Position numbers and translations under genes: made by a program
Part shown: in pieces, positions 4,540 to 53,535 of the stretch
Position numbering within the stretch: the first letter of the stretch is position 1
Layout: every line of letters begins with the position of its first letter
The notes under the pieces: generated by a model
Database searches by the model: none
Seen by the model: only the letters and a program-made list of their open reading frames with translations
What the model was told of the DNA's origin: nothing
Source of the DNA: Diphasiastrum complanatum
Taxonomy: Eukaryota; Streptophyta; Lycopodiopsida; Lycopodiales; Lycopodiaceae
DNA length: 64,000 bases
Assembly (NCBI GenBank): GCA_029204225.1
Contig: CM055112.1
Location: forward strand, 28,161,746 to 28,225,745
Direction: 5' to 3'

Positions 4540-4680
4540 CAGCCATGTCTCTTCTTGCAATTTGCTGTCCAAGATTTTCCGAAATTGCTCTTTGCTGTCC
4601 AAGATCTTCTGACACTACTCTTGGCTGTCCAAGATCTTCCAAAACTGGTCCTTGCTGTCCAAGTGTTCCTGCAGGCTGAT
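4540..4680 (-). repeat. In-frame 10-residue repeats in Copia-A hinge
   Basis: Between integrase and reverse transcriptase the minus strand encodes successive copies of a ten-residue unit of the form GQxxxxSEDL (about 30 bp each), rich in Leu-Gly-Gln. Four to five imperfect copies are readable. The same array is in Copia-B at 12140-12300. It is a local minisatellite in a normally variable linker region. Confidence 0.7.
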
Positions 4681-4774
4681 TTTGAGCAACAATGAGCGGT
4701 CCTTGATGAACATTAGGCTCTAAACTTGATGAGGTGTTGGGCAGTTCGAAACTGGTTGATTGTTGTCCCTTATT

Positions 4775-5197: not shown

Positions 5198-5205
5198 GAG
5201 CATGC

Positions 5206-5580: not shown

Positions 5581-5588
5581 GAGCATGC

Positions 5589-7509: not shown

Positions 7510-8206
7510 TACCTCGAACAGAATTTCAGCTTGTAGTAGATAGGAAACAGAGCCTTTCCAAAGCCAAATCTAGTCAAAAATTTGCATCAAACAATGAGTT
7601 GAAAATAAGAGCACAAGATGTCTTCCAATCTGCAACCAAAGTGCCCAAAAGATAATGGATAGATGGTTATTTTTCTGCACAAAAAAATCAATGTCTTGAA
7701 AATTAGGTTAAATTCGATTGAAGCCTAGAACGAAACCCAATTAGGAAGCCAAATAGTGTGATCAACACACACCTCAATAGGGCTATTGAAGGTGCCCTAC
7801 TACTTGTTGAAAATCTGCAATTTTTCAGCCACAAATTTGTCCTAACCCAAAATAGGGTTTGCTGGATTTTGGGCGCCCTCCTTCAAGACTGCAAACTTGA
7901 AAAATCAACAAAGTAAGAAGGCTCCAAAACCCAAATTAGAAGCAGATTTTTGGGCGCCCTCCTCGAGACAAGACTTGCTGAAAACTGGCTACAAAAAATC
8001 AGATTTGAGATGCTTATTTTTGGGCGCCAAAAATTGCTCCTCCAAGATCCATGATGGGCGCCCTCCTTCAACCTTAAAAAGAGACAAAAAAGCTGATTCA
8101 AACTCCACTTGGAAAAATCAGCAGGATGCTGAATTTTCAGATCACAAAGTAAAGTAGCTCCTCTTTTGGTAGGGCGCCAACATACAAGCTTGTTGTAGAT
8201 CCGGTT
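7510..8206 (-). other. Copia-A untranslated leader with repeated GGCGCC palindromes
   Basis: This is the stretch between primer site and gag start. It has no conserved frame but holds several copies of the palindrome GGCGCC in a context close to GGGCGCCCTCCTTCAA (near 7869, 7952, 8020, 8055 and 8172), with another in the LTR near 8294. The corresponding leader of Copia-B has the same array, with some copies decayed by C/G to T/A changes. A dimerisation or packaging role is inference. Confidence 0.6.
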
Positions 8207-8218
8207 GCTTTGATACCA
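8207..8218 (-). other. Primer-binding site of Copia-A (initiator Met tRNA type)
   Basis: Minus-strand TGGTATCAAAGC differs by one base from TGGTATCAGAGC, the standard plant Copia primer site complementary to the 3' end of initiator methionine tRNA. It directly follows the LTR end. Confidence 0.8.
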
Positions 8219-8358
8219 TGAAAAAAAACAAGAGCCAAGGTACCAAGATCTAACTATCAAACAATCTCCACGAGACAAATGAGGGAAGATGATAGGCGCC
8301 CTCAAGGAGAGAGAGAAAACAAAAAATGGAAAGCAATGCTTAGAAAATGTAAAACTTT
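8219..8358 (-). repeat. Truncated 5' LTR of Copia-A
   Basis: About 140 bp match the last part of the Copia-B LTR (about 8949-9097) in reverse orientation, including the CT-rich tract, the GGCGCC box and the conserved GATTGTTTGATAGTTAGATC block. The outer part is lost. The break at about 8358 joins a gag fragment of opposite orientation across a short AAAA overlap. Confidence 0.75.
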
Positions 8359-8672
8359 GCGGGTGACACTCAACAAGATCAAGCTTTCTTCACAAAAAGC
8401 AAGGGCAAAGGCAAGTCAAAAGGAAAGGGGAAGACTCCTTCCAAGGATGAGCAAAAGCTCATTGGAGGTCAAAATGTCAACACTCAAAAGAAAAAAGAGA
8501 AATTCCATGATTGCAAGAAGTATGGGCACTTCATCAAGGATTGTAAGAAGAAGCTCGTGAAAGAAGAGAGTAAATGAATTGATACTAGTGCTTCACTTGC
8601 TACTTTGGAGCAAGAGCTTGAAGCTAGTGATGATCTCTTCAACCAAGACTATGCTTTTGTGTCTAATATTGC
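8359..8672 (+). mobile_element. Orphan Copia gag-knuckle fragment
   Basis: This plus-strand piece matches Copia-B 10395-10711 (from the GCGGGTGACACTC block to the CTAATATTGCTT block). The knuckle is damaged: the segment reads FHDCKKYGHFIKDC, so the first cysteine is lost, and a stop follows shortly after. It is not joined to either neighbour in frame and sits between the broken LTR of Copia-A and the LTR of Copia-B, so it comes from a third copy or from a rearrangement. Confidence 0.8.
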
Positions 8673-8757
8673 TTTCATAGGTTAAGTTAATTCATAGGTT
8701 ACTTTGACCCAAAAGGTCGAGATTTGTGTAACCATGGGTATTTAGTTATTTAGGCCA

Positions 8758-9097
8758 TGTTAAGTTTGTCAGTTGGACCCAATTTTGGTCATGTAGTGAC
8801 TCGTGAGTCCTTAGGGGTCTAATTTTGTTTAGGGGCCCTATCTTGACTTTCGGAGGTGCCCTACATTTAGTAAGTGGTTAAGCTTAGGGTTTGTTGGCAC
8901 TTGGCCACATCCAGGTAGAGTACTTGTATGCTCATTGTGTATACCAATTTTACATTTGCTAAGCATTGCTCTCCATTTTTTCTGCTCGCATTACTGCTTT
9001 CTCTCTCTCCTTGAGGGCGCCTATCCACTTCCCTCATTTGTTTTGTGGAGATTGTTTGATAGTTAGATCTTGGTGCCTAGGCTCTTGTTTTTCGTCA
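8758..9097 (+). repeat. 5' LTR of Copia-B
   Basis: The right end is firm: CA at 9096-9097 directly before the primer site. The left end is less sure. TGTTAAG at 8758 is a good candidate (340 bp), but the LTR could start as far left as 8673, where the gag fragment stops. The LTR carries a CT-rich stretch near 8998 and a GGCGCC box near 9017. There is no second LTR, so TSD and age cannot be read. Confidence 0.5.
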
Positions 9098-9109
9098 TGG
9101 TATCAGAGC
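9098..9109 (+). other. Primer-binding site of Copia-B
   Basis: TGGTATCAGAGC is a perfect match to the initiator-methionine-tRNA primer site used by plant Copia elements. It directly follows the LTR terminal CA. Confidence 0.9.
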
Positions 9110-9806
9110 AACCGGATCTGCAGCAAGCTTGTATGTTGGCGCCCTACCAAAAGAGGAGCTATTCTACTTTGTGATCTAAAAATTCAGCATCCTCTGCTGA
9201 TTTTTCCAAGTGGAGTTTGGATCAGCTTTTTTGTCTCTTTTCAGGTTGAAGGAGGGCACCCATCATGGATCTTGGAGGAGCAATTTTTGGTACACAAAAA
9301 TCAGCATTTCAAATCTGATCTTTTGCAGCCAATTTTCAACAAGTCTTGTCTTGAGGAGGGTGCCCAAAAATCTGCTTCTAATTTGGGTTTTGGAGCCTTC
9401 TTACTTTGCTGATTTTTCAAGTTTGCAGTCTTAAAGGAGGGCGCCCAAAATTCAGCAAACCCTATTTTGGCTAACGGAAAATTTGTGACTGGAAAATTAC
9501 AGATTTTCAGCAAGTAGTAGGGCGCTTTAAACAGCCCTATTGAAGTGTGTGTTGATCACACTATTTGGCTTCCTAATTGGGTTTCGGTGTAGGCTTCAAT
9601 AGAAGCTAACCTAATTTTCAAGAAGCTGGTTTTTTTGTGCAAAAAAATGGCCATCTATCCATTATCTTTTGGGCACTTTTGTTGCAGATTGGAAGACATC
9701 TTGTGCTCTTATTTTCAGCTCATTGTTTGTTGCAAATTTTTGAGTAGATTTGGCTTTGAAAAGGCTCTCTTTCCTATCTACTAAACCTGAAATTCTGTTG
9801 GGGGTA

Positions 9807-10832
9807 ATGGCTAAAGAATCGGAAGCTATGGGTTCTTTGTTTAGTGAAGATCGGTTGGATGGCATAAACTACTCCTTGTGGAATTACATGATGAAGAATC
9901 TTCTCATAGTGAAAGGGCTATGGGATTTGGTCAATGGTGATGAGGAAAGGCCTCCTTCTTTGGCACCTACTACACCTCGTGGATCATCATCTTCGGAAGA
10001 ACAAAAGAAGTGGGATAGAAGGGATGCACAAGCACATTCTATGGTTGCTCTTGCGGTGAAAAGATCTATCTTATCTCATATTAGATCTTGTAAGACATCT
10101 AAACGTGCGTGGGAAACACTTAATACAATGTATAAGGTCAAAAATCTAGCAAAAGTGGTGTATCTTTGAAATCAACTTTCTATGTTGAAGATGCAAGAAG
10201 GGGATCTAGTGACCAATCACTTGATGAAGATCAAGGATCTTCGTGAGGAGCTTCTCAATATTGATGAGATAATTGAGGATGCTCAATTTGTTTCCATCAA
10301 CTCATTACCCTCCTCTCATCTTCCATTTGTTTAATCTTTGAGTATCTCTCTTAGGGGACATCAACTCTCCTTTGATGAGCTTGTTGGGTTGCTTCTTGCG
10401 GGTGACACTCAACAAGATCAAGCTTTCTTCACGGAAGGCAAGGGCATAGGCAAGTCAACAGAAAAGGGGAAGACTCCTTCCAAGGATGAGCAAAAGCCCA
10501 TTGGAGGTCAAAATGTCAACACTCAAAAGAAGAAAGGAAAGTGTCATTATTGCAAGAAGTATGGGCACTTCATCAAGGATTGTAAGAAGAAGCTTGCGAA
10601 AGAGGAGAGTAAAGGAATTGATACTAGTGTTTCACTTGTTACTTTGGAGCAAAAGCTTGAAGCTAGTGATGATCTTTTCAACCAAGACTATGCTTTTGTG
10701 TCTAATATTGCTTCTACTAGTACTTCTACATCTATGAGAAATTCAGGTTATGTTTTGCAAGTTGCTGATTTTCAGCCCATTGAATGGGTGATTGATAGTG
10801 GTGCTACTCGTTATATGACTTTTCGCAAATGA
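9807..10832 (+). pseudogene. Copia-B gag and protease, interrupted
   Basis: The start ATG (9807-9809) opens MAKESEAMGS and runs through LDGINYSLWNYMMKN and CKTSKRAWETLNTMYKV to a stop at 10167-10169. Past a small deletion and another stop, the frame resumes with SISLRGHQLSFDELVGLLL, the knuckle CHYCKKYGHFIKDC and the protease site WVIDSGATRYMT. Nine codons present in Copia-A just before AGDTQQDQAFF are missing here. The mutations show loss of constraint. Confidence 0.88.
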
Positions 10833-10847
10833 GCATTCCCTAAATTA

Positions 10848-12010
10848 GTGAAAGTGCAAAATGGAAGCAAGGTACAATGTGCGGATAATGCATCTTATCC
10901 TATTCATGGAATTGGAATTGTAGCCTTCATTTTGCCTAATGGTGAAGAAAAGTACATCAAGAATGTGCTCTATGTTTCGGGAATAAAAAAGAGTCTTCTT
11001 TCGATATCAACTTTGTTGAAGCAAGGACTAGTTGTTGAGTTCAAAGAAGATAAGTGTCTTGTCAAGGATCCTAAAAGATCTCTCTTGATTATTGTTTCGG
11101 GAACAATGCATGATGGCTTATTCATGATGGATACCTATGAACAACGAATTCACACTACATGTCTTGTTGTTTCTACAACACAATCATTGGAGTTGGCTGA
11201 ATTGTGGCATGCAAGGCTCGGACATCTCAACTTTGCAAGTTTGAAGAAGTTGAAGACATTTAATATGGTAGAAGACATTCCTACCATTGAGTAGCTGGAA
11301 GGGCATGTATGGTCCAATGAGGACCGAATCCATTGGAAAGTGCATCTATTTTGTGACTTTTATTGATAACTTTTCCCGTTTTACATGGATCTATCCTATG
11401 AAGGCTAAATCGGAAGTTTTTCAACACTTCAAAGATGGAAAATAAGTTTGGGCATTCTTTGAAGACCCTACGCACCGATCGAGGAGGGGAATACGTCAAG
11501 AGTACGTTCGGTGCATTTCTTCGAGAGAAAGGAATTAATTCTACATCAAATGACAACTCCTTATACGCCTCAATAAAATGGTGTTGCCGAGCGAAAGAAT
11601 TGCACACTTATGGAGATGGCCTGTTGCACGCTCAAAGCAAAGGGGCTGTCTCACAAGTTTTGGGCTGAAGCGATTATAACGGCGGCATACATAAGCAATC
11701 GTAGTCCTACTAAAGCATTGAAAGTATTAACTCTTATGAAGTTTGGTATGGGAAGAAGCCAACAATCTCTCACTTTCGCATTTTTAGTTGTACGGAGTAT
11801 GCTTTGGATAAACTTCATGCAAAGCTTGAGGATAAAGGAGATAAATGCATTTTTGTTGGCTATAGTAGTGAAAGAAAAAGCTATAGGCTGTTCAATTTGA
11901 GCACTAACAAGATTATTGTTAGTCGTGATGTGCATTTTGATGAAAAAGAATTCATTAGATGTGGCCCCAACTCATATCTGGAAAGGGGACAGCCCACATA
12001 GTGTGAATGT
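10848..12010 (+). pseudogene. Copia-B integrase with an internal deletion
   Basis: The distal protease and GAG-pre-integrase region reads openly to about 11294 (KVQNGSKVQC, LWHARLGHLNFASLKKL). A deletion of roughly 115 bp relative to Copia-A near 11300-11310 then removes the second zinc-site cysteine pair and the HSDVCGP segment with the first catalytic aspartate. The remainder, in shifting frames, includes the second aspartate region, the NGVAERKN region (damaged), KGLSHKFWAEA and CIFVGYSSERKSYRLFNL. This locus has no hAT insertion and so gives the empty site for 5206-5580. Confidence 0.85.
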
Positions 12011-12139
12011 TGAAGTTTTTCCAGATTTGGTACTATCTTTTATTTCTGAAAATAGGGGACAACAATCAACCAATTTCGAACTGCCCAACACCTCATCAAG
12101 TTTAGAGCCTAATGTTCATCAAGAACTGCCCATTGTTGC

Positions 12140-12300
12140 TCAAAATCATCCTGCAAGGAACAATTGGACAGCAAGGACCAGTTTTGGAAGATCTTGGACA
12201 GCCAAGAGTAGTGTCGGAAGATCTTGGACAGCAAAGAGCAATTTCGGAAAATCTTGGACAACAAATTCCAAGAAGAGACATGGCCGTTGGACAGCCCAAA
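12140..12300 (+). repeat. In-frame 10-residue repeats in Copia-B hinge
   Basis: The units of about 30 bp encode GQQGPVLEDL, GQPRVVSEDL, GQQRAISENL and a degenerate fourth. DNA units share TCTTGGACAGC. The array matches that of Copia-A, so it predates the split of the two copies. Confidence 0.75.
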
Positions 12301-12358
12301 ACAGTCCCACGGTGACTGTTGGCGACTTTGCCGGACAGCAAAGTAAGTTCGTTCTATC

Positions 12359-13276
12359 ATGGAAAGACACGTGCCTATACAAAATCAGTGGACTATGCTG
12401 ATTTTTCAGATTTTGCTATTTATATCTCATGGAGATGTTGCGGAAGAACCTGATTTTTATGAGCAGGCCAAGGGAGTAAATTGTTGGGAGGATGCGATGC
12501 AAGATGAGTATGATTCACTCATGAAGAACCAGATTTGGGTTCTTGTTGATCTTCCTCATGGAAAGAAGGCAATTGGTTCTAAATGGGTATACAAAATCAA
12601 GTACAAGGCAAATAGTACATTTGAAAGGTACAAGGCAAGGCTTGTTGCCAAAGGCTATGCTCAGCAAAAGGGGATTGATTATGAGGAGACTTTTGCTCCT
12701 ACCGCTCGGATGACTACCGTAAGGGTAGTAACCTCTTTGGCTGCCCATTTTGGTTGGCGTTTGCGGCAACTTGACATAAAGACAGCATTCCTCAATGGTG
12801 ATTTCAATGAGGAAGTGTACCTTCAACAACCTGCTGGTTTTTTGATTGAAGGCCAAGAAGATAAAGTTTGTCTTCTCAAGAAGGCACTTTATGGACTGAA
12901 GCAAGCCCCAAGGATGTGGTATCAGATACATGCTTACCTTTGTGATCGTGGGTTTACTAATTGTCCTAGCGAATCTACCTTTATGTCAAGCATACTTCAG
13001 ATTTTATCATCATTACTTTGTTTTATGTTGATGATATTATTGTTATGGGAAGTAATGAGCAGCAAATTGATGTCTTAATACTTGATCTTGGTACGGTTTT
13101 TGAAACCTCAGATTTAGGCCTATTGCACTTTTATCTTGGTCTTGAATTTATACAAGAAGGGGCTGGAATTTTTATCTCTCAAGAACGCTACATTGGGCAA
13201 ATTTTGAAGCAGTTCAAGATGGAAGATTGCAAGCCGGTTGCTACACTTATGGAGACAGGCCTGAAATTAGTTTTAC
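12359..13276 (+). pseudogene. Copia-B reverse transcriptase, truncated
   Basis: The frame contains GSKWVYKIKYKAN, YKARLVAKGYAQQKGIDYEETF, DIKTAFLNGDFNEEVYLQQ, LYGLKQAPRMWY and, after a frameshift near 13000, the catalytic box YVDDIIV. The match continues through YIGQILKQFKMEDCKPVAT and stops after about LKLVLHGD, where Gypsy integrase takes over without a stop. RNase H is missing. The cut lies within about 20 bp of the equivalent cut in Copia-A. Confidence 0.88.
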
Positions 13277-27300: not shown

Positions 27301-28053
27301 GTTAGGACATCCGCATGAAAAACGGCCCAAGGGTGGTTTTGCGTGGGTTTGCTTCAAGGGTTGGGGGCCCTCATGTGCCATGCATTACAATTATTTCACG
27401 TGTCAAAGAAAGGCAAAGAGGCACTTGAAGGGCAATGGGCTTGCAAATGATAATCATGAAAAAAAAAAAAAAAAAGATCCTCCCCCCTGCCCCTTTCTTC
27501 TCTTTTCCTCCTCCTCTGTGTGCTGCTTCTGTGCCTCCAGCGGACGAAGCTCTCGGCGATGGCGATGGCGATGGCGTAAAGTACTCTCTTAACTATGTTC
27601 CACTCCAATCCAACTTCTTCTTCTTCTTGTTATTCTTTAGCGTAACTGGCCGGAAGGAGGCATGGTTGTGCGAGTCAGCGTTGAGCCGCCCCTCTGTTGC
27701 ACTGTTTCCTGCAAGCACAGCACAGTGAAGACACACTCATGCATCACAGCATTCCACTGATCTTAACCAAGAGATAGAAGTAGCTCACTGCTGATCAATG
27801 ACATAAGGTATTGGGTTTTGGGATTCTTTTAGGTTTCTGTTTAAGGTGTTGCATCGTCTGTTTTGGAAGCTTGAGGCGGTTCGGATCGCCTGAGGGTCAG
27901 AGTGATTGCCCAAGTTGTTATTTGGATTTGACTGTTTTAGAATTCTTTTCTTTGCCATGTCATGGATTTACGGAGGGAACGTTTAGATCCTTTAATATTC
28001 ATGAGAGGTCAATCAGAACAAGGAATGCACTCGATATTGTGGGAAGGAGATTG
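27301..28053 (+). promoter_or_regulatory. Upstream region and probable 5' leader of the BT1-like gene
   Basis: A poly-A run (27460-27475) and a CT-rich stretch (27480-27545, typical of plant leaders) precede a tiny upstream frame, three ATGGCG units then TAA (27559-27579). The frame of exon 1 is open upstream of its ATG but contains no in-frame ATG before 28054. I found no convincing TATA box. The transcription start and any leader intron cannot be placed from sequence. Confidence 0.4.
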
Positions 28054-30112
28054 ATGGCAAGCATGCGCGGGGGGGGTACCGAGGGTTTGAAATCTTCACC
28101 CACTGGGGTCCGAGCAGTTCACATAGATAAGCTTATGCGGAGGAGGCAGCTGCCAGCAGAGAGGTTTTCTGCACTTCCCGCTCTGGTTTCCGTGGTCTCG
28201 GAGCAAATGGCAGAACTTGTGAAAAGCCCTCCATTTCCAGATTCCGCCCCTATCTCCGAATTTAGTTTCAAAAATTTTTCTTTACAGGATGAAAATGAAA
28301 AGGTTCTTAAAAGTGTAGTTGAACTGGATGAAAACGAGAAGCAGAAGCAGAAGCAGAAGTCGAGGAAAAAGGGAACGTTGGCTGTTCGTCTGAAATTGGG
28401 AAATGCATCTCTAAAGAGATTGTTAAGTGGGGCTTTTGCAGGAGCAATATCGAGAACAGCAGTAGCTCCTCTGGAAACCATCCGAACCCATTTAATGGTT
28501 GGAAGTGGTGGCAAATCAATTGGAGCCGTCTTTACTAATATAATTGAGACGGAAGGTTGGCAGGGCCTTTTCCGTGGCAATGGTATCAATGTCATCCGAG
28601 TGGCACCCAGCAAAGCCATCGAGGTGCGCCTATTTTATGCAGCTTAATCCTCGTTATCAGATATTTTTTCGGCCCTTATATAGAGTACTGTACTTCTTGT
28701 TTGTCGTACAGGTGGAAGTCAACTTCTTTTATCCGCTGAATCTATCGAGACATGGTGTCTCCTTTATTTCACCTTGTTGGGTTATTTTCGGTTGTGAGCA
28801 CTATATGAATTATTGTATTTTCCTTCATTCCTATTAAGTTGTGGTTGTGGTTGGGTCTAGAGGATAGGTAGGCATTCGTCCTAGATTTTGTAATTAGGAA
28901 GTACATTGAAAGTCATGTGAGGTTCTCAATTAAGTCAATACGTTGTTCACTTCTACTAGTCTTCTAGTATGCTGGAAATGAGAATAGTTATGAATGAACT
29001 CAACATTTTTGTGTTGATTGACGTGAAGAATATAAAAAGTCAATTGTGACAAGCTGAAGTGTACAATTTTGAGAGTATGCATATTACAAGGCAGACAAGC
29101 ATCAACAATTGTACTCGGTGATTGCAAATTACATTTTTTATTCATATGTATCTTTTATATCTCAGATCATTTCATGTTTGTGTTACTCATGTAGATGATT
29201 CTGGATGTTTGGTTTTGTTCTATCCGTACATGCATGGTGGGTGCATTAATGAAACAACTGGTGAGATATCCATTGATTTGCGATTTACCAAACTCGAGTT
29301 TTCAGTAGGGGTTTCAACAAAGATGTTCTCCAAATGGCTTTTCCAACTGGCATTTCAGTAGAGGAATATTGTTGTTATTGAAGTAATTTGGAAATATATG
29401 TATGCTAATAAGGATGCAATAGCATCTAGTCAACGTTACAGATTTGAGCTATGGTTACAAGTTGATGGTTATGTATTTAGACTGGCTTCCCACCCAAGAT
29501 TACGAAATGGATCACTGAATATGCAGCTATTGATAGGTTCTTCATAGATCAGCATGTGAAGCTACTACATGTTGTGCGTCTACAAGTGAGGTACATGGGA
29601 GCAAGAACCGATTGACGCACCTAGATCTTTTATGTGATCCATTTCATATAAGACCCAGGACTGGTGAATGGTGTGCACATGTGCAGAATGTAAGTGTTCA
29701 TGAATATCTAGGGGCCTCCAAGAGTCCCTCTCCAGTGAAGGACAGCTACTAGGTTTATGAATAATCATCAATAAAGTCTGTTGCTCTGGACGCAAGCACC
29801 CTCAACTGCAGATGCATTGATATAAAGCTTAGCACTGACAAAAGCCTGGCTTCTTCATGTGGGGTGAATGTTGTGGAGATGCTAATACGTAAACGTTAAG
29901 GGATTTGCTAGTAGTCTCTCCTTTAAAATGTGGCTAGGGCCCTTGTTGCTCATTGTGGCATCCTTGAAGGCGTGTATTATTCCATGAGCTGTTTGTCAGT
30001 ACTTTTTCACTTGCTCTCCAATACGTCAATTTCACTAGTGCTATCATGGCTTGCATCAATCTTGACCTTTACATTGTTGCTTGTCATACCAGAATGTCAG
30101 TCTTAGATTGGG

Positions 30113-33939: not shown

Positions 33940-35238
33940 TCAAATAGTGTCCACTTGGGATGCTTCACTATTTCTTACATCAATTTTACATGTAAAAATG
34001 TGACTAGAACATGAAGAATCAAATAGAATGTAAATGAAATGATTCCACCATGCTTCCAACTCTGAACTCTCTGGAAAAATACAGCAAACAAACAATAAAT
34101 GTGAGTGATCAACTTTTGCTTGCATGTCTCCTCCTCCTTTGTCCTTTGTTGCCTTGTATCCACCATGATACTCCATGAATGAGCCTCCATCTTCATCTTG
34201 CCACAAGAAACCATCAAACCTTGGAAATACATGAGTAGGTGAGTAAATTAATGATGCAAATCCAGCACCACATGACTCCATAAACCAAGTAGTTTGCACT
34301 AGTCCAACTTCAAGATCTACTTGACACAAGAAAATGACCATGAATTCACCAAAAATTGACAATCTCCAAGTATTGGCACCAAGTAGCTCAACACTTGAGA
34401 ACTTAGCCATGGATGAGTGACATAATGAACCTCCAATAGCTTCATTTTCATCAACAAAATCAGCCAAGAATGCTAGTACAAATCCAACATCAAAACAATG
34501 CTCACCAATGTAGCTAGTTTTACCATATCTTGACAATTTGCACACATCCACATGAAATTGCTCAAACATGAGATAGAACAAGTAAAGTAAACTTGAACAA
34601 CACTTCATTGCTGCTCCTTTGACCTTACTTGAGTCTTCAATATGCTGTAAAAATAGATCCATAACACCTTTGCCAATTACCTCTCCTTTGATGCTCTTGA
34701 CTAGCTCCAAATTGCCAACTTCCCTTTTGACTAGTTGAAGCGCTTTGAGATCAACCTCTTGATTTTTAACTTGACCATCAAAGTCATTGAACAAAATTTG
34801 TTTTCCAGATCCATTACTTGATTTTACAGCAAGATAACATCCATCCACTTGCATAGCTCCATGTACACAAGAAGATCCTCCAAAAAATGTTCCACTCTTC
34901 ATAAGAGATCGATACTCAAGATCCATTGCTTGGATCCACTCCTCTTCTTTCCTTGCTTGATCTACACTTGTAGGATCATCCAAAGAGGTTAGGAAAGCAA
35001 CATAATTTCCAGAAACTACTTGCTTACCCTTTTGATCATATGTGAGCCTTGAAGGTACTTGTCTTTCTCTTGATGTTCTCCTTGGCTTTTGACTTGATGA
35101 AGGTCCATCATCACCACCATCCAAAGTAGGATCCTTCTCATCAACATCAAGAATGTTAGAACCATCTACTTTACCATCAATCATGCTTGAAGACCCCTTT
35201 GGAATGTTTCCCTCATCAAAAATGATCTCTACCAACAA
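33940..35238 (-). CDS. Long chimeric Copia open frame: hinge fused to unrecognised sequence
   Basis: This uninterrupted frame of about 430 codons has no ATG at its beginning and continues integrase after a one-base shift. Residues about 1-115 are the usual hinge (acidic, SSSQKPRRTSRERQVPSRL) and the very start of reverse transcriptase (EEWIQAMDLEYRSLMKSGTF). The remaining 300 or so residues do not show DVKTAFLNG, LYGLKQAPR or YVDD and are unfamiliar: GGSSCVHGAMQVDGCYLAV, then KSIKGEVIGKGVMDLFLQHIEDSSKV, cysteine-containing hydrophobic stretches and HVFPRFDGFLWQDEDGGSFM. It could be captured host sequence, a non-autonomous element's own protein, or non-coding DNA open by chance. I assign no function. 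Confidence 0.45.
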   Translation of the reverse strand: MLVEIIFDEGNIPKGSSSMIDGKVDGSNILDVDEKDPTLDGGDDGPSSSQKPRRTSRERQVPSRLTYDQKGKQVVSGNYVAFLTSLDDPTSVDQARKEEEWIQAMDLEYRSLMKSGTFFGGSSCVHGAMQVDGCYLAVKSSNGSGKQILFNDFDGQVKNQEVDLKALQLVKREVGNLELVKSIKGEVIGKGVMDLFLQHIEDSSKVKGAAMKCCSSLLYLFYLMFEQFHVDVCKLSRYGKTSYIGEHCFDVGFVLAFLADFVDENEAIGGSLCHSSMAKFSSVELLGANTWRLSIFGEFMVIFLCQVDLEVGLVQTTWFMESCGAGFASLIYSPTHVFPRFDGFLWQDEDGGSFMEYHGGYKATKDKGGGDMQAKVDHSHLLFVCCIFPESSELEAWWNHFIYILFDSSCSSHIFTCKIDVRNSEASQVDTI

Positions 35239-35755
35239 TCACTTTGTTAGTAGAAGGAATGTAAACCTTGTAGGCTTTACTCACCTCACTATATCCAACA
35301 AAAATACCTCTTCTTGAAGATGGATCCTCCTTGGTCCTATCATCAAGAGTAATGTTGACATAGCATGTGCATCCAAAGGTTCTTAGAAAGTTGACACTCG
35401 GCCTCCTCTTGAATAGCATCTCAAAAGGTGCCCTTCCATCCAAAATAGCACTCGGCCACCTATTGCACAAGAAATTGGCACACAACAAAGCTTGATCCCA
35501 AAATGGTTTGTCAAGATTAGCACTTAACCTCATAGCTTTAGCACTTTCACATAAAGTTCTATTCTTCCTTTCAGCCACTCCATTTTGTTGTGGGGTCCTT
35601 GATGTTGTATACTCCCTCTTGATCCCATGCTCATCACAAAAGGCCTTGAACTTGTTAGATATGTACTCACCACCATTGTCACCTCTCAAGCACTTGATCT
35701 TTGCGGAGAATTGATTCTCCCTTGCATTCTTGAACTTGACAAAGACATCGGACAC
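35216..35755 (-). pseudogene. Copia-E integrase, 5' truncated
   Basis: The open stretch encodes LRGDNGGEYISNKF (second aspartate region), TPQQNGVAERKNRTL (catalytic glutamate), SANLDKPFWDQALLCANFLCNR, LRTFGCTCYVNI and GIFVGYSEVSKAYKVYIPSTNKVIVGRDHF. These are intact Copia integrase landmarks. The first aspartate and zinc site are lost to the truncation at about 35760. The frame ends at a T5 run (A5 on the plus strand, about 35217-35221), where one extra base shifts it into the long downstream frame. Confidence 0.85.
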
Positions 35756-37033: not shown

Positions 37034-38850
37034 TGTGGTGACCTGGTTTCAGCAATTTGTTAATGATTTCAGTTTTTTATCGCTAAATCTTAAGTCTTTG
37101 CTTTGTCGTTGTGTATAGCCTAATCATAAGTTGCATTCAGTGGGGTACGGCTTAAATTTGTTTTGTGGCATTAAGGCAGCCCTTTTACCACTTATGAATT
37201 TGGCATATGACTGTGCCTAGTCGTTGCTCTTTTAAGTTATAAAAGTCATTGGTTTAAGAAGGCATGAACCTTCATCAAGTTGTTCTTAAGGTTAGTCATA
37301 TTCTAAAGCCCAATCGACATTCTCACATTATTTGGCTTTGTGTGAGAGTCAAGTTTCAATGGTAGTTTTAGCGGCTGACTATAACCCATCATCTTCGCAT
37401 TTCCTAAGGGCAACTGCTATTTTCAAAGGCAAGGCACTACAGATCTGAAGGGCCATTGTCGCACTATTCGGGATTTTCGGAGCCTCGTTCATTCTTTAGT
37501 GCCTACCTCAAAGCACCTCCATGCAGCTAGAGCCTCCCATCTTCGCATTTCTTAAGGACAGTTGTCGCACTTCTTAAAGGCAACTTCGCACTTCTTCAAG
37601 GGACCTTCGCACTTCTTCTCTCTCTCTTTGCATTTTCTCAGAGCAGTGAAGAGAGGTTCTTCTGCACGTAAGTTAGAAGGCATCAAGCCACAAATGCACC
37701 TCCAGCCATCTCGGGCATCAATCGTAGTGTTTTCTAGTAAGACCAGCGAAGGCAGCGCCCTCTTCCTCTCATGCAGGTCAGCAGGCGGTTTTCTTCTAGG
37801 ACAACAACTGAGCAGACAGTTCACACACCTTCCAGAAATAGTTTTGCATATTCAAAGACAGCTTGCAGATGGCCAGCGACCCTCATTCATTCTTCATACG
37901 GCTGTTTTCCTTGCTCAAGGCAGCAACCTTGCATTCCAACTATCGGCTATTTGTTGGCAGCATTCCATTGGCTCATGGGCAGTCATTTCCAGATGACAAA
38001 TATTTATTTGCTCTCTCTTTGCAGACAGATATCAAAGCCCACAGTCTCTAGCACGGATCTCTCTGGCTATATTATGCCAGTCTTATGCCATTGTAATTCA
38101 TTCAGACACAATGTAGAACAGAGGCTCAGAAGCTCTGTTGGTGCTTTAATGTAGATTTACTGCTTTTGTTATTCATCTACAAGATTAGAACCTTTGTGTT
38201 CTCAGATTCTTGTATAGAGGTGTAGCAACCCCTCTTCTTTGTAGTGTCTAGACTGTAATGAATATATCTTTGTACTCTGCAAATGGTGAATACAGATAAT
38301 GTAAATCTGAGTGTCTATAATCACACAAAACTTGTTTCTACTGTGAATACCTTCTGTGCTTTTCATGGTGATTCATTTTGGTAATAGAAAATTTATGGCA
38401 ATGTATTGCTTATGCCTATACATAGTGTTTGGACTGGGATTGTCTAGTGAAGTGCCTCTAGCCTTCAATCTTGTGATTTGCACAGATCATAGGAGTTAGA
38501 TTCTTGATAAGCTACTTTCAAGATAACGGAAACACTGTGTGGCTTTCCCTTTTGCCGAAGTATTTGCTTTCTTGAGTTCACTCCCATTTGAATCTGAAAA
38601 CCATAATGAAGTATTCAGTAGTTTTCTCCTGGGTGTTTGTTTTCTTTATACAGTTGTACTGGCAGCCCCTTCTGGAAACATTTGTTGATGACCAGTTTGC
38701 AATCACTTCTCCTCTCCACTCCATTCCTTCTTAGTTATTTCTGGTTTTGCACTAATAATGACAATATTAGCCTTTTTATTGCTCTCTAGTAGGAACGATA
38801 CCCGTTTATACTACAAATATCAATCATTTTGTTGTTGGTATGCCACGACA
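37034..38850 (+). repeat. 5' LTR of the LARD-like element
   Basis: It starts TGTGGTGACC and ends GCCACGACA. It contains, near 37545-37625, a short minisatellite of TTCGCACTTCTT units with AAAGG spacers, then a CT-rich stretch. TTATAAAAG near 37236 could act as a TATA box. Confidence 0.92.
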
Positions 38851-39620: not shown

Positions 39621-41455
39621 TGTGGTGACCTGGTTTTAACAATTTGTTAATGATTTCGGCTTTCTATCGCTAAATCTTAAGCCTTTGCTTTGTCGTTGTG
39701 TATAGCCTAATCATAAGTTGCATTCAGTAGGGTACGACTTAAATTCATTTTGTGGCATTAAGGCAGCCCTTTTACTACTTCTGAATTTGGCATATGGTTG
39801 TGCCTAGTCGTTGCTCTTTTAAGTTATAAAAGTCATTGGTTTAAGAAGGCACGAACCTTCGTCAAGCTGTTTTTAAAAGGTTATAGTCATATTCTAAAGC
39901 CCAGTTGACATTCTCGCATTATTCGGCTTTGTGTGAGAGTCAAGTTTCAATGGCAATTTTAGCGGCTGACTATAACCCGTCATCTTTGCATTTCCTAAGG
40001 GCAAACTGCTATTTTCAAAGGCAAGGCACTACAGATCTGAAGGGCCATTGTCGCACATTTCACACTATTCGAGATTTTCGGAGCCTCGTTCATTCTTTAG
40101 TGCCTACCTCGGAGCACCTCCACGCAGCCAGAGCCTCCCACCTTCGCATTTCTTAAGGACAGTTGTCGCACTTCTTAAAGACAGCTTCGCACTTCTTCAA
40201 GGGCAACCTTCGCACTTCTTCTCTCTCTCTCTTTGCATTTTCTCAGGGCAGCGAAGAGAAGTTCTTCTCCACGTAAGTTAGAAGGCAGCAAGCCACAAAT
40301 GCACCTCAAGCCATCTCAGGCATCAATCGCAGGATTTTCTAGTAAGACCAGCAATGGCAGCGCCCTCTTCCTCTCATGCAGGTCAGCAGGCGGTTTTCTT
40401 CCAGGACAACAACTGAGCAGATAGTTCACACACCTTCAAGAAATAGTTTTGTAGATTCAAAGACAGTTTGCAGATGGCCAGCGACCCTCATTCATCCTTC
40501 ATACGGCTGTTTTCCTTGCACAAGACAGCGACCTTGCATTCCGACTATCGGCTATTTGTTGGCAACATTCCATTGGCTCATGGGTAGTCATCTCCAGATG
40601 TCAGATATTTATTTGCTCTCTCTTTGCAGACAGTTATCAAAGCCCACAGTCTCTAGCATGGATCTCTCTGACTATATTATGCCAGTCTTATGTCATTGTA
40701 ATTCATTCAGACACAATGTAGAACAAAGGCTCATAAGCTCTGTTGGTGCTTTAATGTAGATTTACTGCTTTTGTTATTCATCTACAAGATCTGAACCTTT
40801 GTGTTCTCAGACTCTTGTATAAAGGTGTAGCAACCCCTCTTCTTTGTAGTGTCTAGACTGTAATGAATATATCTTTGTGCTCTGCAAATGGTGAATACAG
40901 ATAATGTAAATCTGAGTGTTCTGAATCACACACAACTTGTTTCTACTGTAAATACCTTTTGTGCTTTTCATGGTGATTCATTTTGGTAATAGAAAGTTTA
41001 TGGCAATGTATTGTTTGTGCCTATACACAGTGTTTGGACTGGAATTGTCTAGTGAAGTGTGTCTAGCCTTCAATCTTGTGATTTGCGTAGCTCATAGGAG
41101 TTAGATTCATGATAAGATACTTTCAAGATAACGGAAACATTGTGTGGCTTTCCCTTTTGCCGAAGTATTTGCTTTTTTGAGTTCACTCCCATTGGAATCT
41201 GAAAACCATAATGAAGTATTCAGTATTTTTCTCCTGGGTGTTTGTTTTCTTTATACGAATGTAGTGGCAGCCCCTTGTGGAAACATCTATCGATGACCAG
41301 TTTGCAATCACTTCTCCTCTCCACTCCATTCATTCTTAGTTATTTCTGGTTTTGCACTAATAATGACAATATTAGCCTTTTTATTGCTCTCTAGTAGGAA
41401 CGATACCCGTTTATACTACAAATATCAATCATTTTGTTGTTGGTATGTCGCGACA
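39621..41455 (+). repeat. 3' LTR of the LARD-like element
   Basis: Colinear with the 5' LTR throughout, with scattered substitutions and small indels. The TTCGCACTTCTT minisatellite recurs at about 40143-40222. It ends TGTCGCGACA before the duplication CAGGT. Confidence 0.92.
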
Positions 41456-46165: not shown

Positions 46166-46225
46166 CAGCAATGTCATTTCTAGCAGGTGCTAGAAATGAC
46201 ATTAAATTCATTTCAAATCAACATC

Positions 46226-46928
46226 TGTGAAAAATTGCCAAGAATTGGCAAATCTAGCTTGATCAAAAACCATGTAGTATAATGTAGATTTTGTACATAA
46301 GTGGATTCCACACATGTGAGGCCAATATGACACGTGGCAATCCACTCCTAATGTAGGTTAGGTCAAGTCCATAGGGTTGGTCATGTCATTTTGGTAGTGA
46401 TTCCTAGTTTATAGGACCTAAATCCTAGATTTAAGGTGAAAATTTGACTGACTAGCTATCTACCAAGCATGATTCTAGGAAATAGACTAGGGTTTCATTT
46501 TAGGTCAAGGAGAGTGAGTTAACTTCCTTATTACATGCTGGAAATCCACCTAACTTCAAGAAGGAAGTTGAATTTGCTATGTATTTCATCTCTCCATAGT
46601 GAGAAGATAGAAAATTTTTGGAGCTCATTGGCAATCTCAAGCTAGTTCACTATGTACATTGAGTTTTTTTTATCCAAATGAAACCAAATCAATTTCTACT
46701 TATTTCTCAGGTTGAAGGCCATACTACAGCCTGTAGTACACACGTGTGGGGTCAGATTTCAATGTTTATCAATGCTTTTGATTGTTAATGCTTGTTGTTT
46801 GTCAAATTGCCAATCTAGGATCAACTGTTTTGTGTCTAGTTTTTTGATAGATTGTTAAGCAAGCATCAAATCACTCTTGTGGATCTTTTGTAGATCCATT
46901 TATGGTCCTAAAGTACAGTACTTTCACA
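46226..46928 (+). repeat. 5' LTR of the gag-protease element
   Basis: Runs from TGTGAAAAATTGCC to CTTTCACA, next to the primer site. It contains a near-palindrome, CCTGTAGTACACACGTGTG, in the third quarter. Confidence 0.93.
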
Positions 46929-46941
46929 TGGTATCAGAGCC
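46929..46941 (+). other. Primer-binding site of the gag-protease element
   Basis: TGGTATCAGAGCC, a perfect initiator-Met-tRNA primer site directly abutting the 5' LTR. Confidence 0.92.
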
Positions 46942-47340
46942 AAGTACAAGAGCATAAGCCATTGATCTAATGCAAATCCATTTTTAGCAAGTTTTGGTGC
47001 TAAAAACTAGTATTGAGAGGGCAAGATAGAATCTTGATTTTTGTGAGGAGATTTGATCCCAAACTTGGCAGGGGTCCAAATCCGTACTGTCCACATGTGT
47101 GGGCACCTCTGAACATGCATTTAATGCATGGTATTCATTTGATCCAAAGAAATTCAATTTGTTACATGAAAAGAAGTCACGGAGAGTGCACATGATTATG
47201 TACTCAGAATCAAGTCTCTAAATAGAAAGTCGGCTTCCATTGGAGAGAAGATTCATGATGGAGAGCTTGTACAAATTGTTCTAAATGGTCTAGGAGATGA
47301 CTTTGCAAATTTGGTCCAAAATTTTTCCATCTAAGACACT

Positions 47341-48567
47341 TTGCCAACTATAGAAAAACTTCACAATGTATTAGTGGCTGAAGAGTGTAGGATGCTCCAT
47401 GCAAAATCTAGGATGAGTTCCTTGTCTTTGCAGGATGGTGATGAGAAAGCCAATTTCTCATTCAAGGGCAAAAAGAAGACCAATGGAAAGAAGAAACATC
47501 CAAAAGAGGCCAAAGAAGAGGATGATGCATCAAGCTCAAAGGACAAGTCAAAGCAGAAATGCTTCTTTTGTGGAAAGAAGGAGCATTATGCATCTGAATG
47601 CTACAAGAGGCTAAGAGCACAAGTGGATGAGGACAAACAAGGAAACCTTGCAAAGGAGAAGGAGGATGATGAAGTAGATGTATTCTTGATGGCATCTACA
47701 TCCTCACCAACAAACAATAGCAATTCAAGAGACAATTGGTGGATCGACAGTGGGGCTAGCTCCCACATGTCTTGTGAAAAGGACTTTTTCTCAAGCTTAC
47801 ACTCTTTCAATGCTGCTAAAAAGTTTGTCTTTACTACAAATGATGAAGAGCGTAGGATAGATGGTGTTGGCACCATCTCTTTGTATCTAGAATCCTCAAA
47901 ATGCATGGATCTAAAAAATGTCCTTTATGTACCATCAATCACCAAGAATATGCTTAGTGTTGGTCTACTCTTAGAAAGTGGTGTGGATGTCCACTTTAAG
48001 CATGGTGTTTGCTTCATCTTGAAGAATGATGGTTGCATTGCAAAGGGATTTAAACATGGAAGATTGTTTAAGTTGGAAGCTAGTGTTGCTTTTGAAAGAA
48101 TGAGCTTGGCAAAGGAGAAAATCACTCAAGAGGAGATCTTGGCAAAGTGTGATCTTGCTTGCGTTGAGGAGGAGCATCAAAAGGAGGAAGACCTTGAGGA
48201 TCAGCTTCAAAGCATGAGAATTTCAAGGGAGTCCTCAATGACAATGGCCGAGTCATCAAATTGCATGCAAATTGTCCATTCAAGTGTGCATCTTACAAGG
48301 GTGGTGAGCATTGGAGAGTCTACTATCTTTGGATACTTTTTGGAAAGTAGTAGTAGACATGAGTTGACTTGTTTCTTACCTTTAAGATTCATGGTGTTTA
48401 TTACTGTGTATGACAAGACAATGAAATGGGTTGCTTTGAAATCTACATTTGTTGTTGATAAAGCAAATTCATTGGATAACTATTTTTGTAATAGTTTGAA
48501 TAGAGTCATAAAAGATGAAACATCATTTTTCCTTGGAAATCTTTGTGTCCACATGCTTTGTGCATGA
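47341..48567 (+). CDS. Copia gag end, zinc knuckle, protease and novel tail
   Basis: The frame of about 408 codons has no ATG at its start (it opens with TTG after the stop TAA at 47332-47334). In-frame gag sequence lies just upstream of that stop (DYVLRIKSLNRKSASIGEKIHDGELV, 47190-47330), so the stop is probably a mutation. Within the frame are PTIEKLHNVLVAEE (gag end), a Lys-rich stretch, the knuckle CFFCGKKEHYASECY and the protease site WWIDSGASSHMS, followed by LKNVLYVPSITKNMLSVG. From about residue 250 on, the sequence (EEEHQKEEDLEDQLQSMRISRES, then VYDKTMKWVALKSTFVVDKANSLDN) is not integrase and is not recognised. Gag lacks its N-terminal half. Confidence 0.8.
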   Translation: MPTIEKLHNVLVAEECRMLHAKSRMSSLSLQDGDEKANFSFKGKKKTNGKKKHPKEAKEEDDASSSKDKSKQKCFFCGKKEHYASECYKRLRAQVDEDKQGNLAKEKEDDEVDVFLMASTSSPTNNSNSRDNWWIDSGASSHMSCEKDFFSSLHSFNAAKKFVFTTNDEERRIDGVGTISLYLESSKCMDLKNVLYVPSITKNMLSVGLLLESGVDVHFKHGVCFILKNDGCIAKGFKHGRLFKLEASVAFERMSLAKEKITQEEILAKCDLACVEEEHQKEEDLEDQLQSMRISRESSMTMAESSNCMQIVHSSVHLTRVVSIGESTIFGYFLESSSRHELTCFLPLRFMVFITVYDKTMKWVALKSTFVVDKANSLDNYFCNSLNRVIKDETSFFLGNLCVHMLCA

Positions 48568-49159
48568 TCATTCCAATGTAAGGACCAAAGATTATCCTAT
48601 TTCAATGATAGGAATAATGGTAGTGTTTTGCTCTTCAAGTAGAGATTGTAGAATCTACTTGTTTTCAACCAAAGAATTTGTCAATGGTGGAATGGAAGAT
48701 TTGTAAACTTGAAGAAGTACCTTTGGATCAGCACCTTATTCAATTCATTGATGGTTTGGAGTCAAGTCAAGTGGAGGAGCAAGCTCAAGACCCCAGGACT
48801 CCAAGAAGAACCATGAGTATCAAGATGGAGCCATCTAGGCTCAATCATATGGATCAAGCAAGGCAAGTTGTCTTTATTATGTATGCACTTAGTAGTTTTA
48901 TTGATGTATCTTCCAGTGCCCAAAATGTCTTGGAATCCATGGCTTGGCATGATGTTTAGTTTTGAAGTGTGCTACATGTATATAGACACATTTATGGAAC
49001 ATCTTGTAAGAGATCCTCTAAGAGGTGGTGAAAGATCCTTCATGGACATCATTCTCTATTGGAGTCTCAAAAGTTCCTTGTTTGTAGCTGGATTTATTAG
49101 ACACTTCTAAAAGCTTTCATTCATCTACCAAGAGAGTTGTAAATAGATCAAGCTAAATT
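48568..49159 (+). other. Interior tail of the gag-protease element
   Basis: Between the frame end and the polypurine tract. It holds shorter frames (48678-48959: LEEVPLDQHLIQFIDGLESSQVEEQAQDPRTPRR) with a flavour of Copia hinge but no integrase or reverse transcriptase motif. Origin unknown. Confidence 0.5.
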
Positions 49160-49160
49160 T

Positions 49161-49169
49161 GAGGAGGAG
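49161..49169 (+). other. Polypurine tract of the gag-protease element
   Basis: GAGGAGGAG stands directly before the 3' LTR TG. Confidence 0.85.
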
Positions 49170-49871
49170 TGTGAAGAATTGCCAAAAATTGGCAAATCTA
49201 GCTTGATCAAAAACCATGTAGTATAATGTAAATTTTGTACATAAGTGGATTCCACACATGTGAGGCCAATATGACACATGGCAATCCAATCCTAATGTAG
49301 GTTAGGTCAAGTCGATAGAGTTGGTCATGTCATTTTGGTAGTGATTCCTAGTTTATAAGACCTAAATCCTAGATTTAAGGTGAAAATTTGAACAACTAGC
49401 TATCTACCAAGCATGACTCTAGGAAATAGACTAGGGTTTCATTTTAGGTCAAGGAGAGTGAGTTAACGTCCTTATTACATGCTAAAAATCCACCTAACTT
49501 CAAGAAGGAAGTCGAATTTGCTATGCATTCCCTCTCTCCATAGTGAGAAGATAGAAAATTTTTGGAGCTCATTGGCAATCTCAAGCTAGTTCACTATGTA
49601 CATTGAGTTTTTGTGATCCAAATGAACCAAATCAATTTTTACTTGTTTCTCAGGTTGAAGGCCATACTACATCCTGTAGTACACACGTGTGGGCTCAGAT
49701 TTCAATGTTTATCAATGCTTTTGATTGTTAATGCTTGTTGTTTGTCAAAATTGCCAATCTAGATCAACTTTTTTGTGTCTAGTTTTTTTATAGATTGTTA
49801 AGCAGACATCCAATCACTCTTGTGGATCTTTTGTAGATCCATTTATGGTCCTAAAGTACAGTATTTTCACA
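49170..49871 (+). repeat. 3' LTR of the gag-protease element
   Basis: Colinear with the 5' LTR, with roughly three dozen differences by eye. It ends ATTTTCACA, then the duplication ACATC. Confidence 0.93.
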
Positions 49872-50117
49872 ACATCAACAAGCATTATCTTGGGATCTTT
49901 TTTTGGATGGTGTCGACTACCCATTTGGCAATGAACAAGGTTATCATGAATGTCCACCGGACCCATATGGCTATTATTGAAAATTTGCATTCAAGCTTCG
50001 AGGCAGGTGTCATGGGACTGCCACCAGTTTTGGTGGGGGGATACTGTTGGAGAGTCTGCAAATCCCAAGGCAATCCTAACCCTAGTTAATAAGTGAGAGG
50101 GATTTTGCACCACACCT

Positions 50118-52350: not shown

Positions 52351-53535
52351 TCAGTGACTGCTGGTGGGAAAAAGAGTAAGAATAGGTCTCTGGGAAGAGT
52401 TTGATGGAGCTTGGTTATCCATTCCAAGCTCTCTGTGTTCTCCTGCAGCAAATCTTTGAGCATTTGCTCTCATAACTGCTGCATAAGGGTGCTGATCAAA
52501 GGCCCCATAGGCTAGGGCAGCCCCCATGCTTGCAGGATTAAGCCCAGGCATTGCCACAGGCAGCATGGGAGGTGCAAAGGGGATGGCAACCACGTCATCT
52601 CTGTGGCTTGGCAGAAAATTCGCAGATGCAGCAAGGCCAGGAGGTATGGGAGTGGAAGCAAAGAGCTGATCAGAAGCTGTTGGCCCTTCTGATGTGAGGC
52701 CTTGCATCCTCTTCAGATACAACCTGTATTTTTGGAGATGGCTGGCGACATTTTCCCTGGTGAGGCCTTCCACATTCATCAGCTGCATGATTGTTTTGGG
52801 CACAGCGTTTTTTATGCCAAGATGAGCTACCGCATCTACAAAACGCTTGTGGAGCTGAGGAGTCCATACCAGGCGAGGGCGCTTGAGCGTTCTTGCAGCT
52901 TGATCTTCTCCTGAGTTTTCTGGCCCACCACCAGAATCCCCCTCTTCTGAGTCTGCCCCATCTGCTGCTTGTTGGGTTCTTGCTCTCTTGGGCTGGCTGC
53001 CACCTCCATTGCTGCTGTCAGAAGCACCCGCTCCCCCAACATAGCTGCTCTCTGTCCTCCTCTCATAAGCAGAATAGGGTAAAGTATTCATGATAGAGGG
53101 CAGCATAACTGTTTCCACTTTTCTGCTCAGCTCCATAGCTCCCTGCTGCATTGTTGCTCCTGGATTGAATCCTGCTGTGTTGCTTGCAAAAGGTCCGAAG
53201 GAAATCCCTCCATGGCCAAGATCACTCTTTGCGGTTTCTGTTTCAACAACCATTGCCCTTGCACGCTCAAACCCAACTGCATTGCTCTTGTCTTGCTCCT
53301 TGGCAACAAATGGGAGAAAAGAATTGAAATGTGAAGACGAGGAATGACGCTGGACTGAGGACATGGAGGCTTTGGATGCGCTGAGTACATCTGCAGGAGT
53401 TTTGGATGATTCGTCTGCGATGCTAAAAGCGCTAGCCAGCTCTGGACTAATGAGGGTTTGAGTGAGAGGGGTGAGCTCATCCAGCGAAGGTAAGCCCCTT
53501 TCGTCAGCCGTCACTTGTTCCTTCTCAGACGGCAT
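52351..53535 (-). CDS. LUX: LUX ARRHYTHMO/PCL1-like GARP transcription factor
   Basis: A single-exon frame of 394 residues. An in-frame TAG lies 18 bases upstream of the ATG (53533-53535), so the start is secure. Residues about 14-40, [26 protein letters not shown], match the N-terminal signature of the LUX/PCL1 family. The GARP (Myb-like) DNA-binding domain is at about 218-278 (DNA 52702-52884): [19 protein letters not shown], then [19 protein letters not shown] and the diagnostic [15 protein letters not shown]. An acidic, glycine-rich segment precedes it. In Arabidopsis LUX joins ELF3 and ELF4 in the evening complex and represses clock genes at GATWCG sites. Intronless structure also fits. 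The rest of the protein (Ser-rich N-terminal half, Pro/Ala-rich C-terminus) is divergent. BOA/NOX is the alternative name for a close paralogue. The frame looks intact. Confidence 0.93.

What the first reader, a model, noticed from the sequence alone, without database searches (positions are those of the whole stretch)
46226..49871. Complete gag-protease-only Copia element with perfect LTR/TSD structure
LTRs of 703 and 702 bp, TGTGA/TCACA ends, TSD ACATC, primer site and polypurine tract are all intact, yet integrase, reverse transcriptase and RNase H are wholly missing. Gag also lacks its N-terminal half. It resembles the TR-GAG class described in plants, but keeps a protease and carries a novel tail. 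It was evidently mobilised in trans.
Basis: partly seen in the sequence, partly recalled or inferred. Interest (0 to 1): 0.7.

Follow-up and report, generated by a model that had tools for sequence, protein, structure and literature searches.

The report
Pol-less Copia element with dead integrase
This is a damaged copy of a common plant jumping gene whose relatives keep only a shell protein and a protease and must borrow their copying enzymes from another element; such freeloaders are already known in other plants.

Summary
The structure is real: LTRs 46226-46928 and 49170-49871, TSD ACATC on both sides, PBS and PPT present, no RT or RNase H detected. Two readings change.

(1) The window copy is not shown to be a propagating form. 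It has a deletion of about 0.9 kb (leader part plus ~114 Gag codons). Among the 40 best interior matches only three places have it, sharing one target site and flanks: one insertion, later duplicated. Its relatives lack pol too: in 27 of 27 other interior loci read, the interior runs straight into the 3' LTR, where RT would lie. They encode Gag, zinc knuckle, protease and a tail in one frame, up to 737 codons. About 1,860 PPT-3'LTR junctions were counted; 199 of the 200 rows listed look like this family.

(2) The "novel tail" is an eroded integrase (SH3 domain in 6 of 14 proteins at E 0.001 or better, best 1.6e-7) plus the IN-RT linker.

In 28 insertions, changes shared by three or more copies show purifying selection on Gag (7 N/16 S) and protease (8/11), not on the tail (27/8). 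It works like the "semi-autonomous" Gag-Pro elements of wheat. No helper was found. New member of a known kind.

The parts
46221..46225 (.). left target-site duplication ACATC
   Evidence: the same flanks at both C13 copies
46226..46928 (+). 5' LTR, 703 bp, TGTGA...TCACA
46929..46941 (+). primer binding site TGGTATCAGAGCC
   Evidence: sequence; assignment to initiator tRNA-Met is recalled
46929..47162 (+). first 234 bp of the family's untranslated leader
   Evidence: 93-97% in the 24 of 27 other loci that show it
47162..47165 (+). junction of the deletion (about 0.9 kb of leader and Gag start present in other members)
   Evidence: short imperfect repeat at the two ends
47182..47550 (+). C-terminal part of Gag, with an in-frame TAA at 47335-47337
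47554..47601 (+). CCHC zinc knuckle
47737..47982 (+). aspartic protease region (WWIDSGASSHM; Pfam Pol_BBD)
   Evidence: E 2.1e-21
48085..48956 (+). tail: eroded integrase and IN-RT linker, with two frame changes in this copy
48527..48691 (+). region of the integrase SH3-like domain remnant, in another frame from the protease
49161..49169 (+). polypurine tract GAGGAGGAG
49170..49871 (+). 3' LTR, 702 bp
49872..49876 (.). right target-site duplication ACATC

Best explanation
The window holds one old, internally deleted member of a large semi-autonomous Copia family. The family's normal form is about 4.57 kb: two ~700-bp LTRs around a ~3.17-kb interior with one ORF encoding Gag, zinc knuckle, protease and a degenerate integrase, with RT and RNase H gone. 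Shown: structure, high copy number, absence of pol in the copies read, integrase ancestry of the tail, selection on Gag and protease but not detectably on the tail. Inferred: the element makes its own Gag and protease, its RNA is packaged into particles that also hold a helper's Gag-Pol, and the helper's RT-RNase H and integrase copy and insert it. The window copy later lost (or was copied without) the leader/Gag start and cannot make normal Gag.
For: Other copies: in 27 of 27 interior loci other than the window insertion the interior runs straight into a 3' LTR; a same-strand LTR is also seen upstream in 25 of 27 (not L015, L037); 24 of 27 show the leader, interior 2,994-3,308 bp. Of 137 matches of these ends and the window interior to 30 Copia RT loci, none reaches RT or beyond. 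Copy number: 1,282 junctions plus 581 of a variant with a shorter PPT, reversed-pattern control 0 in both. ORF: 737 (L025/L026) and 734 (L029) codons, Gag PF14223 E 4.5e-23 and 6.3e-24; Gag matches the solved Copia VLP protein (E 4.8e-9). Tail: SH3_retrovirus in 6 of 14 proteins at E 0.001 or better, best 1.6e-7, 11 of 14 at E up to 10; colinear match to Copia IN, first half reached by 2 of 500 shuffles, second half by 0 of 500; linker match. Selection: changes shared by three or more copies, Gag 7 N/16 S (17 of 23 at codon position 3; omega-like 0.20, p 1e-4), protease 8/11 (12 of 19; 0.31, p 0.014), tail 27/8 (about 1, p 0.54); singletons not distinguishable from neutral in all three; Gag against tail p 0.0004-0.0011 in all six robustness sets. 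Same-insertion duplicates.
Against: No helper element was found, so trans-mobilisation is inferred. Both TSD sides were read only for the window insertion and for a solo LTR (L006, TGTCC); for other members only the 3' flank was in hand. No expression or protein data. Changes shared by exactly two copies show little constraint even in Gag (14/8, omega-like 0.68, p 0.28) and none in protease (21/7, 1.16). The selection signal could partly come from exchange with an autonomous relative. In the two longest-ORF copies (L026, L029) the SH3 match stays under Pfam's cut-off (E 0.0025, 0.0086). The tail has no stop shared by three or more copies (two stops are shared by two copies) and no shared frame-changing indel, against five in the UTRs, which hints that its frame may not be wholly free.
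Confidence: 0.82

Rival explanations
1. A single deleted copy of an ordinary autonomous Copia element; pol was lost in this copy only.
For: The exact interior is one insertion event as far as the search reached.
Against: In all 27 other interior loci read the interior runs into the 3' LTR without RT; junction counts give 1,282 and 581 places, and 199 of the 200 rows listed have this family's upstream end.
Confidence: 0.03
2. The gag-truncated form in the window is itself a propagating sub-lineage.
For: It is flanked by a perfect TSD and has LTRs, PBS and PPT.
Against: Another close copy would match the whole 2,241-bp query and should outrank the others; only three of the 40 scored do, all with the same target site. 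The genome count of the deletion junction was asked for repeatedly and never answered.
Confidence: 0.05
3. The eroded-integrase tail has a new role, for example as a C-terminal extension of Gag-protease that aids packaging or recruits the helper.
For: Frame open to the tail's end in L025/L026, L029, L015 and, for the tail part read, L070; no stop shared by three or more copies and no shared frameshift.
Against: Shared changes in the tail fall evenly over codon positions (12 of 34 at position 3) with N/S near neutral; two stops shared by two copies; many private frameshifts.
Confidence: 0.12
4. The Gag/protease selection signal is borrowed: it arose in an autonomous relative and entered by template switching, so Gag-protease of this family is not itself used.
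For: Template switching between partners is discussed for wheat elements (passage of PMC9744471).
Against: Such exchange would not by itself explain long open Gag-protease frames in several insertions together with a neutral tail next to them (inference).
Confidence: 0.12

Closest known systems
RLG_Sabrina_SA of wheat ('semi-autonomous' GAG-Pro element; PMC9744471, passages read)
   Same: High-copy LTR family coding Gag and protease but no RT or integrase; thought to supply these proteins while a partner supplies the rest.
   Different: It is Gypsy; ours is Copia and keeps a recognisable integrase relic fused to the protease.
Fatima subfamilies famc1.4/1.5 of wheat (PMC6097303, passages read)
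   Same: gag and protease ORFs; another subfamily proposed to supply RT and integrase.
   Different: The paper writes RLC_famc1 (Fatima) in this passage but RLG_famc1 and RLG_Fatima elsewhere, so it is probably Gypsy; its partner is proposed, ours was not found.
TR-GAG elements, e.g. Arabidopsis AT5TE33540 / ATCOPIA63 (PMC8704663, passages read)
   Same: Copia-named element with LTRs and one Gag ORF (562 aa), moves in ddm1, pol-bearing relative as likely helper.
   Different: Described as Gag only; ours has protease and integrase relic. The paper I recall as defining TR-GAG was not held.
RLC_Giselle of barley (PMC5738225, passages read)
   Same: Copia family lacking RT and integrase with potentially intact gag.
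   Different: Protease and an integrase relic are not mentioned in the passages read.
RLG_Quinta / RLG_Cereba of einkorn (PMC11302176, abstract and outline read)
   Same: Non-autonomous partner that contributes Gag, cross-mobilised by an autonomous one.
   Different: Gypsy, centromeric; partner proposed by name.

Membership tests
Copia (Ty1/copia) LTR retrotransposon | LTRs with TG..CA ends, 5-bp TSD, PBS and PPT | tested here: met
Copia (Ty1/copia) LTR retrotransposon | Copia-type Gag and protease | tested here: met
   PF14223 E 4.5e-23, PF22936 E 1.4e-22; Copia VLP protein E 4.8e-9
Copia (Ty1/copia) LTR retrotransposon | domain order protease-integrase-RT | tested here: inconclusive
   integrase relic follows protease as in Copia; RT is absent so the full order cannot be read
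TR-GAG | short LTR element with a Gag ORF and no pol (criteria recalled; paper not held) | tested here: inconclusive
   Gag ORF and no RT in family members; but protease and integrase relic are present, and the published size limits were not checked
semi-autonomous Gag-Pro element | intact Gag-protease ORF, no RT or functional integrase | tested here: met
   L025/L026 and L029; not met by the window copy itself (stop and deletion)
semi-autonomous Gag-Pro element | an autonomous partner sharing LTR ends/PBS | tested here: inconclusive
   no LTR match in 30 RT loci, but these hold only 1.5 kb after RT, so little LTR could be seen; of 200 listed PPT-LTR rows one, C2:24312912, has an unlike upstream end and was not read
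semi-autonomous Gag-Pro element | Gag-protease under selection | tested here: met
   (for changes shared by three or more copies)

The most novel reading that the evidence does not exclude
A Copia lineage specialised as a Gag-protease donor, present in over a thousand copies, whose dead integrase stays in frame as a C-terminal extension with a new job, such as docking to the helper's Gag-Pol in the particle.
Probability: 0.12. Interest if true: 0.6.

Novelty: new member of a known kind. Interest (0 to 1): 0.4.

Why it matters
The Gag-protease precedents I read are from wheat, and in the passages read the case that their Gag is useful rests on intact reading frames. Here the comparison is made inside one family: Gag and protease are constrained in copied lineages while the integrase next to them drifts. 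That makes the 'semi-autonomous partner' idea testable: such elements may be kept for the proteins they still make, not only as deletion products. The integrase relic also shows an intermediate step in how an autonomous Copia turns into a Gag-protease element.

Tried and rejected
Helper search. RVT_2 family search: 119,353 first-look candidates, 150 scored; 30 loci read, none with LTR or interior DNA similarity, a weak test because each holds only 1.5 kb after RT. PPT-LTR junction patterns: the two odd ones read, C21:12067913 and C2:14734464, are family members; C2:24312912 was not read; only 100 rows of each of the last two patterns are listed. A protease-motif pattern with other codons gave 6,767 places, too many to follow. 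No helper named.

Tail as a captured host gene or new domain: rejected as origin, because it is colinear with Copia integrase.

L006, first thought a possible helper LTR, is a solo LTR with TSD TGTCC inside another Copia RT. A frameshift at tail residue ~588, first thought shared by several copies, turned out to be different indels in different copies. Fatima was first noted as a Copia precedent; the paper's other passages call it RLG.

Indel counts in leader and Gag are probably inflated by L015, which lacks the leader; only the shared indels are used. That sample shows no indel at all in knuckle plus protease, and protease has no stop even among singletons; this is unexplained. The choice of the 40 best matches favours copies like the window copy. 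Rows dropped before the selection counts: eight near-identical duplicates (L010, L011, L017, L020, L024, L025, L032, L038).

Host: plant by its Copia elements and genes (inference); 1.74 Gb and contigs numbered to at least C23 made me think of the clubmoss Diphasiastrum complanatum (recalled, not tested; listings did not settle it).

Not-in-print: searches for gag-protease or degenerate-integrase non-autonomous Copia elements were (listings, plus passages of the papers named); sought soybean SNARE/SARE and found none. I do not claim that no such element is in print.

Full report
Observation. The two LTRs (46226-46928 and 49170-49871) are 94-96% identical depending on alignment, the 5-bp duplication ACATC lies on both sides, and PBS and PPT touch the LTRs as expected. 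The interior is 2,241 bp. Its one long frame (47338-48564) holds the zinc knuckle and protease. A TAA at 47335-47337 cuts it from the remaining part of Gag, and the tail continues in two other frames.

Same insertion, three places. The genome holding the window could be searched. With the interior as query (6,825 first-look candidates, 40 scored), the best three matches were the window and two places on C13, both covering all 2,241 bases at 99.8%. The two C13 copies are identical over 5,241 bp, and TSD and nearby flanks are the same in all three. This is one insertion, later duplicated in the genome or in the assembly. The other 37 of the 40 matches start at query bases 236-239, because the window copy lacks about 0.9 kb that they have. 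The lost piece ends in the middle of Gag; short similar words (AATTCAATTTGT and AAATCAAATTTTG) lie at the two ends, so slippage or template switching between them is a likely cause (inference).

The family. Of 30 interior loci fetched, three are the window insertion. In 27 of 27 others the interior passes into the 3' LTR, the place where RT would lie; a same-strand LTR is also seen upstream in 25 of 27, L015 and L037 being the exceptions. The leader is seen in 24 of 27, with interiors of 2,994-3,308 bp, 22 of 24 between 3,127 and 3,174. Of 137 translated matches between these ends plus the window interior and 30 Copia RT loci, none reaches RT or the 1.5 kb after it. Six pairs among the 27 are near-identical, leaving 21 other insertions. 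Pattern counts gave 1,282 places for the PPT-LTR junction with GAGGAGGAG and 581 for a form with one GAG fewer, with reversed-pattern controls of 0. Only 100 rows of each are listed; 199 of these 200 rows have this family's upstream end, and one place is in both lists. Haplotype duplicates are included. LTR divergence in 18 copies, 17 of them read over part of the LTR only, runs from 0.0085 to 0.060, median 0.024; the window copy (0.046) is the fourth most diverged.

What it encodes. The longest members, L025/L026 and L029, have one frame of 737 and 734 codons from stop to stop, with the first methionine at residue 21. It reads: Copia Gag, CCHC knuckle, protease, tail. By sequence Gag matches the solved Copia particle protein. 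The tail aligns with Copia integrase of the same genome: its first half with the region around the first catalytic aspartate (HSD in integrase, HSS here), its second half with the SH3 domain. Against shuffles of the same composition the first half is reached by 2 of 500 and the second by 0 of 500. Between the two matched blocks the integrase has 127 residues and the tail 49, and no DNGGE motif is left in L026 or L029, so the second and third catalytic residues (recalled positions) appear to be gone. SH3_retrovirus matches 6 of 14 proteins at E 0.001 or better, best 1.6e-7, and 11 of 14 at E up to 10; in L026 and L029 it stays under Pfam's cut-off. The tail's end matches the linker between integrase and RT of another Copia relic in the window (34957-35226, minus strand). 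So pol was cut near the start of RT, and integrase decayed.

Selection. Twenty-eight insertions were aligned to L026 (22, six partial ones added). Changes found in one copy are not distinguishable from neutral in all three regions (N/S Gag 116/50, protease 113/35, tail 160/50). Changes shared by three or more copies, which arose in copied lineages, are 7/16 in Gag (p 1e-4 against neutrality), 8/11 in protease (p 0.014) and 27/8 in the tail (p 0.54). Seventeen of 23 lie at third positions in Gag, 12 of 19 in protease, 12 of 34 in the tail; in the two wrong frames the Gag and protease ratios rise above 1 (it scores one codon fewer per region, giving 27/7 in the tail). Changes shared by exactly two copies show little constraint: 14/8, 21/7 and 38/19. 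The contrast holds without CpG sites, without the window and oldest copies, and without the partial copies (Gag against tail p 0.0004-0.0011). Against a wholly free tail: no stop shared by three or more copies, though two are shared by two, and no shared frame-changing indel in 891 bp while the UTRs have five. The sample is small and I do not build on it.

How it works. Inference from anatomy: transcription from the LTR, translation of Gag-protease, assembly with a helper's Gag-Pol, priming at the PBS, and insertion by the helper's integrase at the TGTGA/TCACA ends. Shown: that the family multiplied in a form without RT, and that Gag and protease were constrained while it did. Not shown: the helper. 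Among 30 RT loci none shares LTR or interior DNA, but these loci reach only 1.5 kb past RT.

Compared with what is known. Wheat Sabrina_SA is called semi-autonomous for a Gag-Pro ORF (PMC9744471, passages). Fatima subfamilies carry gag and protease ORFs (PMC6097303, passages). Barley Giselle is a Copia with gag but no RT or integrase (PMC5738225, passages). A TR-GAG of ATCOPIA63 with one 562-aa Gag ORF moves in Arabidopsis ddm1 (PMC8704663, passages). Einkorn Quinta adds Gag to a pair with Cereba (PMC11302176, abstract and outline). The family here is one more of this kind, of Copia type, with protease and a decayed integrase still attached.

Verdict. Structure right, family right in kind, the copy itself a single broken insertion as far as the search reached, the tail explained. 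Ordinary in kind, with a clear selection contrast as its best point.

Noticed in passing
window 33940-35743 (-): Copia integrase relic whose frame runs from the IN-RT linker and the first residues of RT straight into about 300 open codons; the 432-aa ORF has no Pfam match at E 0.1. It may be another pol-deleted element with foreign sequence; a copy search did not complete.
   Followed up: partly
window 3557-13269: Two Copia copies in opposite orientation, 92-98% identical over several blocks.
   Followed up: no
window 37034-38850 and 39621-41455: Direct repeats of about 1.8 kb, 93% identical, 770 bp apart; possibly long LTRs with a very short interior.
   Followed up: no
window 52351-53535 (-) and 27811-28647 (+): Host gene pieces: a Myb-like DNA-binding protein of GARP look (label recalled; Pfam Myb_DNA-binding E 3.1e-9) and a mitochondrial carrier piece (E 4.4e-18).
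   Followed up: no
L004/L005, C3:2882668-2887328: Two family members tail to tail: their 3' LTRs are 100% identical over 702 bp, interiors 98.1% over 1,345 bp, different flanking bases.
   Followed up: partly
window 46170-46203: Perfect 16-bp inverted repeat with a 2-bp loop, ending 22 bp before the 5' LTR.
   Followed up: no
L010, L011 (C13:16240159, C13:16072249) and window: The same stretch of at least 5.2 kb occurs on C21 and twice on C13, 168 kb apart: segmental duplication or assembly duplication.
   Followed up: partly
family loci L012-L038, knuckle and protease region: No indel in this 534-bp region in the copies compared, and no stop among singletons, unlike Gag and tail. Unexplained.
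   Followed up: no
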